Made by a program: the position numbers and the translations under genes
In this document: piece by piece, positions 5,392-13,165 of the stretch
Numbering within the stretch: the first letter of the stretch is position 1
Layout of the letters: each line of letters starts with the position of its first letter
DNA from: a virus
IMG/VR virus record: IMGVR_UViG_3300041809_000220
Span: 1-23,470 of that record
Direction: 5' to 3' (one strand)
DNA: 23,470 bases
The notes under the pieces: model-generated
The model's database searches: none
Told to the model about the DNA's origin: nothing
Seen by the model: the letters and a program-made list of their open reading frames with translations, nothing else

Positions 5392-5466
5392 TGGCCTGTA
5401 GCTCAGTGGTAGAGTCCGCGGCTGTTAACCGTGTTGTCGGTGGTTCGAATCCATCCAGGCCAGCCA
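5392..5466 (+). tRNA. tRNA-Asn (anticodon GUU), CCA encoded
   Basis: A full cloverleaf folds: acceptor TGGCCTG/CAGGCCA, D arm GCTC/GAGT, anticodon stem CGCGG/CCGTG around loop CTGTTAA (anticodon GTT), T arm GGTGG-TTCGAAT-CCATC, discriminator G and an encoded CCA (5464-5466). All four stems pair apart from G-U wobbles. It lies within the structural block, between a small ORF and an acidic protein gene, and probably supplements host tRNA-Asn for AAC/AAU codons. Confidence 0.95.
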
Positions 5467-11208: not shown

Positions 11209-13165
11209 ATGGCTGTTTCACCAGTCTATGCAAATTCCTCCAACCAGATTGCTGCGTTGAAGGAGCTTTACACGGACGATAAAGACTACATGAAGAACAT
11301 TGTCTAAATAGCGTGGGCAATGATTATTTTCCAGAAATGACGCTAAGAATCCTTGGCTGGCAATGATCCCGAAAAACGAGAGCCCAGACGGATTCGCTGG
11401 AAAATACATCCCTAGATTGATGGGGATGTTAAATCAGGCAAAATCGGTGAAGGCTGAAATGCTAATACCGAGGGAAGTTAGGCTTAACAACCGAAACCCC
11501 GTAGAGCGTAGTGGACGAACCTAACACAGAGTGTTAGAATATAAGCCACCAAGAGTGCCTGACACTCGGAGTTTTATGAGTGAAAATGTACGCCGAGCTA
11601 GCGCGAAAACGTGCTCTGCTTGTGGAAAAACAAAGGTCGAAGACAGAAATTGGTATCGCAATTCGACGTGTCCGGCTTGTTATATGGCAGTTTTAAGAAA
11701 AACAAGGCCCGAGGCAATTAGAAGTGCGAAACTAAAGTGTTATTACGGGATTTCTGTTGAGCACTTTAATAAACTGTTACAAAAACAGGACTTTAAGTGC
11801 GCAATCTGTAGGTCCAGTACTAACAAGCTTAAAAATGGAAAACTGCAAAACTTTGTAGTCGACCACTGTCACAAGACAAAAGATGTCCGAGGACTTTTAT
11901 GCCACACCTGCAATATGCGAGTGGGCATATTCGAAAACTGGGGCAATTCCATAAGAGAGTATTTAACAAGCGCTAGAAGCCGAGGATAAAAAGCCACGGC
12001 GATAACAAAAGCAGCGTAAGCTGCTCTGGTTCCTCTCGAGTATTCCAATCCTGCTGGCCGTGCGCACGTATTTGCGAACGCACAAAATCAGCAAACCGCA
12101 ACAAGCGTTGTCTCGTACTTCGTTTATGCGATTCAGGATTACCAACTCGTTACCATCACCAATCTGTTGATGGAGCAAACCAAAACCAATGCTGGCGCGT
12201 TCGTTGATGAAGCAAGCCGCACGCTTGATAATGGTTTCCGTAACATTTCGAACAATATGGCGTTTGAATTGTTTTCGGGCGGTACCGCTTCTCGCGGTGT
12301 CATTAGCTCTGCTGGCGTTTCCTATTCTGCTCCGACTCTGACCTTCACCTTGGCTAACAGCCAAGCTGTGGTTCAGTTCGAAGTTGGAATGGTTCTGCAA
12401 GCTTCGGCTACCGATGGTGGCGCTGCGCTTCAGAATACCCCCGGTACCATTGATGCGATCCAGATTACTGCGGTTAACCGTGGTACTGGCGTGATCTCTG
12501 GAACGGTTGTTCAAGGTGCTCCGCAAACCTCTTGGGGTGCTGGCGATTATCTCCAGATCTTGGGCGATATCGGTATCGGTGGAGCTTCGACCATTGCAGG
12601 CCTCTTGGGCTTGTCTGGCGTAGCTGCATGGGTTCCGGTTGTTGATCCTCCGGCTAATGACAATTTCTGGGGCGTTAACCGCTCTGCAGACATGACTCGT
12701 CTTGGCGGCCTTCGTTACAATGCATCGGCTCAATCGATCTCTGAAGGATTGACCTCGGCTCTTGCGTTGGCTAACCGAGAAGGCGCTGCTCCGGACCTGA
12801 TCATCATCGACTTCGTCAGTTACTCGACGCTGATCAATGAATTGGGCGCTAAAGTCCAGTACGTTCAACTCGAGCACGATGAAGTGCCGGTGGCATTTGA
12901 AGCAATTCATTTCCACAGCGCTTACGGCAAGGTTCCGGTGTTGGCTGACCGCTCGCAACCGGCTCAATCCGCTAACGTGCTTACGGTCGATACCTGGAAG
13001 CTTCGCACTCTCGGCAAGGCTCCTCATATCTTGACCTACGGCATGGAAGGACTTGAAGGTCTGCGTGTTGGTAATGCTGACGCTCTGGAGATCCGCATTG
13101 CTTATTACGGCAATGTGATCAACAACGCTCCTGGCTACAACATGAATGTTCAGCTCAGTGCTTAA
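11209..13165 (+). CDS. major capsid protein, interrupted twice (3 exons)
   Basis: Exons are 11209-11305, 11340-11413 and 12029-13165: 97 + 74 + 1137 nt, together one 436-codon frame (435 residues). Exon 1 encodes a 32-residue start (MAVSPVYANSSNQIAALKEL..., YMKNIV) that meets a TAA right after it. Exon 2 encodes AKNPWLAMIPKNESPDGFAG plus KYIP, and exon 3 resumes VPLEYSNPAGRAHVFANAQN. The order (ANS-LYTDD, NP-LAMIPK-ES, GKYIPVPLEY-NP-GR) matches the capsid family I recall from podophages, with nothing missing. Downstream come the shell domains, including LANREGAAPDLIIIDFVSYS and DTWKLRTLGKAPHILTYGME. Position after scaffold supports the call. Exon 1 joined directly to exon 3 would shift frame, so both inserts must be removed, with exon 2 kept, for full-length protein. 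Confidence 0.92.
11306..11339 (+). other. 34-nt coreless mini-intron with group I-type guide
   Basis: A 34-nt insert in the capsid gene, beginning after U11305 and ending in G11339, the base rule of group I introns. Its 14-nt segment TAGCGTGGGCAATG (11309-11322) is a guide for the joined exons. GGGCAATG pairs with exon CATTGTCT (11298-11305) in an 8-bp P1 with a U-G pair at the 5' splice site. TAGCGT pairs with exon ACGCTA (11340-11345) in a 6-bp Watson-Crick P10. The remaining 17 nt (11323-11339) cannot form P3-P8, so it has no catalytic core. Removal gives NIV-Y-AKNPW in frame. Splicing by a core supplied elsewhere is my inference; a deleted intron remnant is the main alternative. Confidence 0.8.
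11414..12028 (+). ncRNA. group I intron in capsid gene, with homing endonuclease ORF
   Basis: Starts after U11413 and ends in G12028. P1 is CATCCCT (11407-11413) with GGGGATG (11422-11428), U-G at the splice site. Fitting core pieces: P3 TCAGGCA (11434-11440) with TGCCTGA (11556-11562); P4 TCGGT (11444-11448) with ACCGA (11467-11471), with A-rich joining segments; a P7.1-like hairpin CTAACAC/GTGTTAG (11521-11537); P8 CTCGG (11565-11569) with CCGAG (11980-11984), its loop holding the endonuclease ORF; P7 possibly GTGG (11511-11514) with CCAC (11994-11997); and a GUAA-tetraloop hairpin GCAGC/GCTGC (12011-12024) before the 3' site. The extra-hairpin layout suggests subgroup IA. P10 is weak (about 3 bp). 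It looks self-splicing; P7 and P9.0 are tentative. Confidence 0.88.
11576..11989 (+). CDS. intron-encoded endonuclease VII/HNH-type homing endonuclease (137 aa)
   Basis: ATG 11576 is chosen because CTCGGAG lies 5 nt upstream; the in-frame GTG at 11531 would lie inside an intron hairpin. Two zinc-type pairs come first (CSAC, residues 13-16; CPAC, 32-35). Then comes a recombination endonuclease VII-like domain: CYYGISVEHFNKLLQKQ (55-71), FKCAIC (73-78), VVDHCHKTKDVRG (94-106) with the catalytic-type D96-H97 and H99, and LLCHTCN (107-113). Such enzymes cut intronless capsid alleles so that the intron is copied in. Its end overlaps the proposed P8 3' strand. It might also mobilise the neighbouring 34-nt insert by co-conversion, since the two lie only 74 nt apart. 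Confidence 0.92.
   Translation: MSENVRRASAKTCSACGKTKVEDRNWYRNSTCPACYMAVLRKTRPEAIRSAKLKCYYGISVEHFNKLLQKQDFKCAICRSSTNKLKNGKLQNFVVDHCHKTKDVRGLLCHTCNMRVGIFENWGNSIREYLTSARSRG

What the first reader, a model, noticed from the sequence alone, without database searches (positions are those of the whole stretch)
11298..11345. A 34-nt insert in the capsid gene carries a full group I-style splice guide but no ribozyme
Seen directly: codon GTC is followed at once by TAA, and the capsid frame resumes at 11340 in another frame. Cutting 11306-11339 leaves U before and G at the end of the insert, the group I rule, and restores NIV-Y-AKNPW. Within the insert, the 14 nt at 11309-11322 are the reverse complement of the joined exon junction (CATTGTCT+ACGCTA) except for two G-U pairs: an 8-bp P1 and a 6-bp P10, adjacent as in an internal guide sequence. 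A 6-bp Watson-Crick match at one fixed place has a 1 in 4096 chance, on top of the P1 and the reading-frame repair. Group I introns need several hundred bases for P3-P8; only 17 nt remain. I know of no described intron of this form.
Basis: partly seen in the sequence, partly recalled or inferred. Interest (0 to 1): 0.96.

Follow-up and report, generated by a model that had tools for sequence, protein, structure and literature searches.

The report
Coreless introns borrowing a neighbour's ribozyme
A 34-letter insert in a phage coat-protein gene looks like an intron that carries only the splice guides of a self-splicing (group I) intron and is probably cut out by the ribozyme of a complete intron lying 74 letters downstream, an arrangement repeated in dozens of other uncultured phages and, as far as I could find, not described in nature before.

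Summary
Window 11306-11339 interrupts a major head protein gene. It has the group I end signals (U before the 5' site, G as last base) and an adjacent 8-bp P1 and 6-bp P10 guide, but no core.

Among 143 distinct relatives of this gene, 36 carry such mini-introns (33 distinct, 30-59 nt, nine positions). All 36 also carry a full group I intron; none of 89 intron-free genes has a mini (p=2e-21). Each mini has U at -1, G at the end, and P1+P10 averaging 12 bp (5 expected).

A third, covarying helix appears. The mini's tail pairs with the exon immediately upstream of a downstream full intron's own P1 (-12.3 versus -3.8 kcal/mol when swapped), in one case across 1.1 kb. Full introns below minis usually lack P2, and this 'anchor' seems to replace it.

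Best model: one ribozyme core removes two introns, first the coreless mini (P1-anchor-core), then itself. Similar minis occur in other phage structural genes. Splicing itself is inferred; no RNA data were available.

The parts
11209..11305 (+). exon 1 of the major head protein gene (MAVSPVYANSSNQIAALKELYTDDKDYMKNIV + first base of next codon)
   Evidence: tblastn; spliced alignment; family = PHROG 9953 major head protein, matched by 13 of 25 aligned relatives
11306..11339 (+). 34-nt coreless mini-intron: U at -1, G as last base, stop codon at once, shifts the frame
   Evidence: absent from intron-free relatives L002 and L036
11298..11305 (+). mini P1, exon strand CAUUGUCU; pairs with 11315-11322 (GGGCAAUG), U.G at the splice site
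11309..11322 (+). internal guide: 11309-11314 (P10, pairs with 11340-11345) directly followed by 11315-11322 (P1)
   Evidence: shuffles and exon swaps
11325..11334 (+). anchor strand UAUUUUCCAG in the mini tail; pairs with exon 11397-11406
   Evidence: appears in the unconstrained minimum-energy fold
11397..11406 (+). anchor target CUGGAAAAUA in exon 2, abutting the full intron's P1
11340..11413 (+). exon 2 (74 nt) between mini and full intron; the mini 3' splice site lies in the anchor hairpin loop
11406..11429 (+). P1 of the full intron: ACAUCCCU (11406-11413) with GGGGAUGU (11422-11429); no P2 follows
11414..12028 (+). full group I intron (615 nt), proposed source of the ribozyme core for both introns
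   Evidence: Rfam group I model aligns full length but weakly (15 bits, E 0.51)
11431..11593 (+). catalytic core P3-P4-P5-P6-P7-(P7.1-like hairpins)-P8; P7 = GCGUA/UACGC
   Evidence: 30-sequence alignment: 97.2% of cells paired, 32 of 42 pairs with two-sided changes, P7 100% paired; P7 variants
11531..11989 (+). endonuclease VII-type HNH gene inside the full intron
   Evidence: Pfam PF02945 E 1.6e-16; PHROG 2914 E 2.7e-26
12029..13165 (+). exon 3 of the major head protein gene

Best explanation
11306-11339 is a coreless group I-type intron. It carries all the substrate elements of group I splicing: the 5' site in P1, an internal guide with P1 and P10 halves, and a terminal G. The catalytic core is supplied in cis by the full group I intron at 11414-12028. 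The mini's tail base-pairs with exon 2 immediately upstream of that intron's P1, giving the order P1(mini) - anchor ('P2', with the mini 3' splice site in its loop) - P1(main) - P3...P8/P7. The core would first dock the mini P1: guanosine attacks after U11305, then exon 1 attacks after G11339, guided by P10. Removing the mini removes the anchor strand, and the core then docks its own P1 and excises itself. Shown by sequence: the guides, the end bases, the repaired frame, the co-occurrence, the anchor and its covariation, and the covarying core. Inferred: that splicing happens, that the neighbouring core does it, and the order of events.
For: (1) 36 of 36 genes with minis also have a full group I intron; 0 of 89 intron-free genes have a mini (p=2e-21). 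(2) Guides and end bases in all minis. (3) P10 is longer in minis than in full introns (5.6 versus 3.6 bp, p=7e-7). (4) The anchor target ends about 7 nt before the full intron's 5' site whether exon 2 is 23 or 116 nt long. Matched energy averages -12.3 kcal/mol (-11.7 if always assigned to the nearest core), swapped -3.8, best of 20,000 permutations -7.0. (5) L247: a perfect 10-bp anchor skips a P2-bearing intron and reaches the P2-less core 1.1 kb away. L018/L280: two minis anchor to two different cores. (6) P1, P10 and anchor covary among homologous minis. (7) P2-less cores and minis go together in this gene (25/1 versus 2/12, p=2e-7). (8) The window's unconstrained fold shows P1, anchor and main P1 as successive hairpins, z -3.5. 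(9) The neighbouring core is a covarying group I core. (10) The same layout occurs in other phage structural genes.
Against: No RNA or protein data were available; all sequences are metagenomic contigs. A few minis lack a convincing anchor (L204 at codon 31, L226). L088 at codon 56 has both P2 and a mini upstream. P2-less cores without minis exist in other genes (19 of 49 class-1 cores) and L211 codon 34 is one in this gene, so lacking P2 does not by itself predict a mini. Rfam scores these cores weakly or not at all. How the core would exchange one P1 for another is not shown.
Confidence: 0.82

Rival explanations
1. Coreless intron spliced by group I chemistry, but by a core acting in trans (the excised neighbour or another intron in the cell), the neighbour being linked only because both are inherited together by homing.
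For: Isolated P1 helices are known to be usable by separated group I cores (general knowledge), and engineered trans-excision ribozymes exist (PMC4094466). Homing with co-conversion would link a mini to a nearby intron: exon 2 is more diverged from L002 than exon 1 or the start of exon 3 (57/73 versus 91/97 and 112/120).
Against: The anchor targets the exon directly 5' of a specific core's P1, including over 1.1 kb. That contact is useful only in the unspliced cis transcript.
Confidence: 0.09
2. Dead remnant of a full intron after loss of its core; the gene is broken or tolerates the insert.
For: At codon 53 both full introns and minis occur, so minis may descend from full introns.
Against: 33 distinct minis keep covarying P1, P10 and anchor; 32 of 33 meet an in-frame stop inside the insert, yet the exons stay conserved; none occurs without a full intron.
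Confidence: 0.03
3. Translational bypassing (as in T4 gene 60 or yeast mitochondrial byp elements): the ribosome hops over the insert.
For: Short insert with a stop right after the take-off codon.
Against: Take-off codon equals landing triplet in 0 of 33 minis. Bypassing does not predict U|...G ends, P10, or dependence on a group I intron nearby.
Confidence: 0.02
4. Assembly or sequencing artefact.
For: None beyond the source being metagenomic.
Against: The same class recurs with different sequences at nine positions in contigs from many separate metagenomes.
Confidence: 0.01

Closest known systems
Group I self-splicing introns of phages (T4 td/nrdB/nrdD type; capsid-gene introns as in mycobacteriophage LittleE, PMC3706429)
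   Same: U.G pair at the 5' site in P1, internal guide with P1 and P10, terminal G; the neighbour has a normal core and an HNH endonuclease.
   Different: The mini has no core (P3-P9), is 30-59 nt long, and has its core outside and downstream of its 3' splice site.
Engineered trans-excision-splicing ribozymes and the 'spliceozyme' (PMC4094466)
   Same: A group I core removes an internal segment that is not itself, using P1, P10 and a further contact near the 3' site.
   Different: Those are man-made and carry the guides on the ribozyme; here the guides sit inside the short intron, the system is natural, and the core is itself an intron in the same transcript.
Group I twintrons and twin-ribozyme introns
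   Same: Two splicing units work together in one transcript.
   Different: The two introns here are side by side, not nested, and only one has a core.
Degenerate introns needing trans-acting RNA (group III-like and fragmented group II introns; general knowledge)
   Same: Substrate intron separated from the catalyst.
   Different: Group I chemistry and guides; bacterial virus; catalyst is the neighbouring intron.
Translational bypass elements (T4 gene 60)
   Same: Short in-gene insert with an immediate stop.
   Different: No matching take-off and landing codons in 33 minis; group I signatures instead.

Membership tests
Group I intron (the 34-nt insert) | U.G wobble at the 5' splice site within P1 formed with an internal guide | tested here: met
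   39 of 40 minis by automatic register; window 8 bp
Group I intron (the 34-nt insert) | terminal guanosine at the 3' end | tested here: met
   40 of 40 minis
Group I intron (the 34-nt insert) | P10 pairing of the guide with the 3' exon | tested here: met
   6 bp in window; mean 5.6 bp over 33 distinct minis
Group I intron (the 34-nt insert) | conserved catalytic core P3-P8 with the P7 guanosine site inside the intron | tested here: not met
   Only 17 nt remain after the guide; Rfam finds nothing in the insert
Group I intron (the 34-nt insert) | splicing with guanosine cofactor | not testable with these tools
   no RNA data or bench work
Group I intron (the neighbour, 11414-12028) | covarying P3, P4, P5, P6, P8 and pseudoknotted P7 | tested here: met
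   97.2% of cells paired, 32 of 42 pairs with two-sided changes, P7 100% paired; slid controls 31-38%
Group I intron (the neighbour, 11414-12028) | own P1 with U.G and terminal G | tested here: met
   ACAUCCCU x GGGGAUGU, ends ..CUCUG|GUUCC
Group I intron (the neighbour, 11414-12028) | match to the Rfam group I model at the curated threshold | tested here: not met
   15 bits against 50, E 0.51; relatives also below threshold. This is a detection threshold, not a structural feature; the structure itself was tested by covariation
Translational bypass element | matching take-off and landing codons | tested here: not met
   0 of 33
Twintron | one intron nested inside another | tested here: not met
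   mini and full intron are separated by conserved coding exon 2
Trans-excision ribozyme / spliceozyme substrate | segment without own core removed by a separate group I core | not testable with these tools
   layout fits; activity needs experiment

The most novel reading that the evidence does not exclude
Phages carry a natural class of guide-only group I introns that depend on the ribozyme core of another intron in the same transcript. One core serves two (perhaps more) introns by successive exchange of its P1, with each mini addressing its core through an anchor helix placed 5' of that core's P1: a natural, RNA-only separation of catalyst and intron, as in a minimal spliceosome.
Probability: 0.8. 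Interest if true: 0.96.

Novelty: categorically new. Interest (0 to 1): 0.93.

Why it matters
Group I introns are textbook autonomous ribozymes: each carries its own core. A natural class of core-free introns that recruit a neighbour's core would show that the split between 'intron as guide' and 'shared catalyst', thought to be a key step from self-splicing introns to the spliceosome, also happened in group I introns and is maintained by covarying base pairs. It would give natural parts for programmable RNA excision with introns as short as about 30 nt, and means that frameshifts or stops in phage structural genes may be unrecognised mini-introns. The prediction can be tested at once with in vitro transcripts.

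Tried and rejected
Rfam at gathering threshold: no intron hit in the window or in ten relatives; with relaxed E-values on three short stretches also none, so the core was established by covariation instead.

First mini finder without a core anchor had far too many false positives (60 hits in 139 control windows); tightened. Its non-capsid hits with class-1 cores (L157, L159) look spurious.

Spacer pairing to the core body or to the intron tail instead of the exon: no consistent signal.

Bypassing: rejected. Frameshifting: a +1 shift, the only one that would regain the frame after 34 nt, meets TAG at once (by eye).

Sequenced phages: no relative of this head protein among 50,697 records; class-1 and class-2 core relatives there sit in ordinary split genes as far as annotation shows. 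No relative in bacterial genomes. The head-protein fold prediction was too poor to use (pLDDT 48). The literature searches found no natural precedent, but the library holds only open-licence PMC papers and no bioRxiv collection.

Full report
WHAT IS THERE. The window is a 23,470-bp IMG/VR phage contig. Portal, a scaffold-like gene and a head protein gene follow each other. The head protein gene is in three pieces: exon 1 11209-11305, exon 2 11340-11413, exon 3 12029-13165. The protein belongs to a major head protein family (PHROG 9953; 13 of 25 aligned relatives match, best E 9e-14). Between exons 1 and 2 lies the 34-nt insert of the finding.

Every coordinate and pairing claimed is in the sequence. 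A spliced protein-to-DNA alignment against intron-free relatives places the insert exactly at 11306-11339 without any knowledge of splice signals.

IT IS A CLASS. I collected relatives of the gene (plus core-pattern loci) and ran the spliced alignment on all: 209 loci, 143 distinct genes. 36 genes have one or two inserts of 30-59 nt, and L189, cut off at its contig end, has one more. All 36 have at least one full intron, and the mini lies upstream of one. 16 genes have full introns only, 89 have neither, none has a mini alone (Fisher p=2e-21). One 22-nt insertion in L049 has no guide and is not counted. Between 59 and 184 nt there are no inserts, apart from one 67-nt artefact at a contig end.

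GUIDES. For 40 minis the junction was chosen only by pairing and by keeping the protein: 40/40 have U at -1, 40/40 end in G, 39/40 have U.G at the site. P1 is mostly 7-9 bp (some with one bulge or one U.U mismatch) and P10 mostly 5-7 bp, directly adjacent. Shuffled inserts or swapped exons give 5 bp in all instead of 12. P10 is longer than in full introns (5.6 versus 3.6 bp, p=7e-7), as if the mini needs it more. 32 of 33 distinct minis meet an in-frame stop inside the insert.

THE THIRD HELIX. The part of the mini behind the guide is not filler. It pairs with exon 2, and the target abuts the P1 of a downstream full intron: modal distance 7 nt from its 5' splice site, for exon lengths from 23 to 116 nt. 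Matched spacer-target energies average -12.3 kcal/mol (-11.7 using simply the nearest core), swapped ones -3.8; no permutation of 20,000 went below -7.0. Two cases stand out. In L247 the mini at codon 25 is followed by a P2-bearing intron (codon 125) and then by a P2-less one (codon 135). Its tail TGTTCGTGAT is the perfect complement of ATCACGAACA directly upstream of the second one's P1, 1.1 kb away. In L018/L280 the mini at codon 32 is anchored to the core at codon 57 and the mini at codon 48 to the core at codon 63. In the window, TATTTTCCAG (11325-11334) pairs with CTGGAAAATA (11397-11406), and the unconstrained minimum-energy fold shows mini P1, anchor and main P1 as three hairpins in a row (z -3.5, 0 of 200 shuffles as stable).

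COVARIATION. Nine distinct minis at codon 48: P1, P10 and anchor 92% paired, 5 pairs with two-sided change, 17 such cells against 5.8 shuffled, 0/500; slid registers 37-52% paired. Synonymous differences in the exon (GCG/GCA, GGT/GGC/GGA, AAA/AAG) are matched in the mini. At codons 32-33 nearly every pair varies and stays paired.

THE CORE NEXT DOOR. Thirty class-1 cores aligned: P3, P4, P5, P6, two hairpins between P7 and P3 (as in subgroup IA; that assignment is from general knowledge), P8, and the P7 pseudoknot. 97.2% of cells paired, 32 of 42 pairs with two-sided change, P7 100% paired with GCGUA, GCAUA, GAGUA, GACUA types. A second core class (about 200 nt, no endonuclease, 'TCTCTGATTGACTTGGA') also serves minis.

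P2. Class-1 introns of this gene without a mini have a P2 hairpin between P1 and P3; those below a mini go straight from P1 to P3 (25 P2-less with mini, 1 without; 2 P2-bearing with a mini upstream, 12 without; p=2e-7). One of the two exceptions (L247) is not the anchor partner. In other genes P2-less class-1 cores occur without minis (19 of 49), so this is an association within this gene. It suggests that the anchor stands in for P2.

MECHANISM (inferred). Strand order P1(mini) - anchor - P1(main) - P3..P8/P7 matches the usual P1-P2-P3 order, with the mini 3' splice site in the loop of the P2-like helix. The core would splice the mini first; this destroys the anchor and leaves main P1 as the only substrate.

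OTHER PHAGES. A protein-free scan around class-2 cores (212 with a main P1 called) found further minis with P1, P10, anchor and frame repair in unrelated loci: 18 places at score 18 or more, against 3 and 0 in shifted controls; about five of the 18 are the gene studied here. They include L403/L471/L455, L445/L448/L434/L464/L468 (the L448 exon matches PHROG 1357 major head protein), L461/L514, L511/L516 and L416. Within the L445 group the anchor target changes (CAGATAAAC, CAACTCAAC, ATTATCAAC, CAAATAAAC) and the tail changes with it. Because an anchor was required for detection, these energies are descriptive. L523 from that list is a false hit by eye.

LITERATURE. Capsid-gene group I introns are known (LittleE, PMC3706429). 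Engineered group I ribozymes that excise an internal segment are known (trans-excision splicing and the spliceozyme, PMC4094466). A survey of phage group I introns (PMC11878797) and a review (PMC3984707) showed no core-free introns in the passages searched. I found no natural precedent within the library available.

LIMITS. No transcript or protein evidence; only uncultured contigs; related sequences are not independent, so p-values are descriptive of strength rather than exact; a few minis lack a clear anchor (L204 codon 31, L226).

Noticed in passing
L058, whole head protein gene: One head protein gene with five interruptions: one mini and four small full introns of at least two core classes.
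   Followed up: partly
L058 codon 97; L297 codon 352; L300 codons 34, 126, 337: A third compact core class (motif CGAATATCGGTTAAA, 184-193 nt, no open reading frame) in the same gene; not aligned or tested.
   Followed up: no
L049, codon 353: A 22-nt insertion with no guide pairing in an otherwise intron-free head protein gene; may be an indel or assembly error.
   Followed up: no
L204/L165/L200, codon 31: A 52-nt mini with its own small internal hairpin and no anchor to the only downstream core; how it is removed is unexplained.
   Followed up: partly
L211, codon 34: A P2-less class-1 full intron with no mini upstream, the only such case in this gene.
   Followed up: partly
window 11340-11413: Exon 2 is much more diverged from the intron-free relative L002 (57/73 identical) than exon 1 (91/97) or the start of exon 3 (112/120), suggesting that mini, exon 2 and full intron moved together as one cassette.
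   Followed up: partly
window 5392-5466: A tRNA-Asn (GUU) gene between the terminase and later structural genes.
   Followed up: no
window 11531-11989 and relatives: The intron-borne endonuclease VII genes differ widely in sequence, and their reading frames overlap the 3' part of the ribozyme core including the 3' strand of P7.
   Followed up: no
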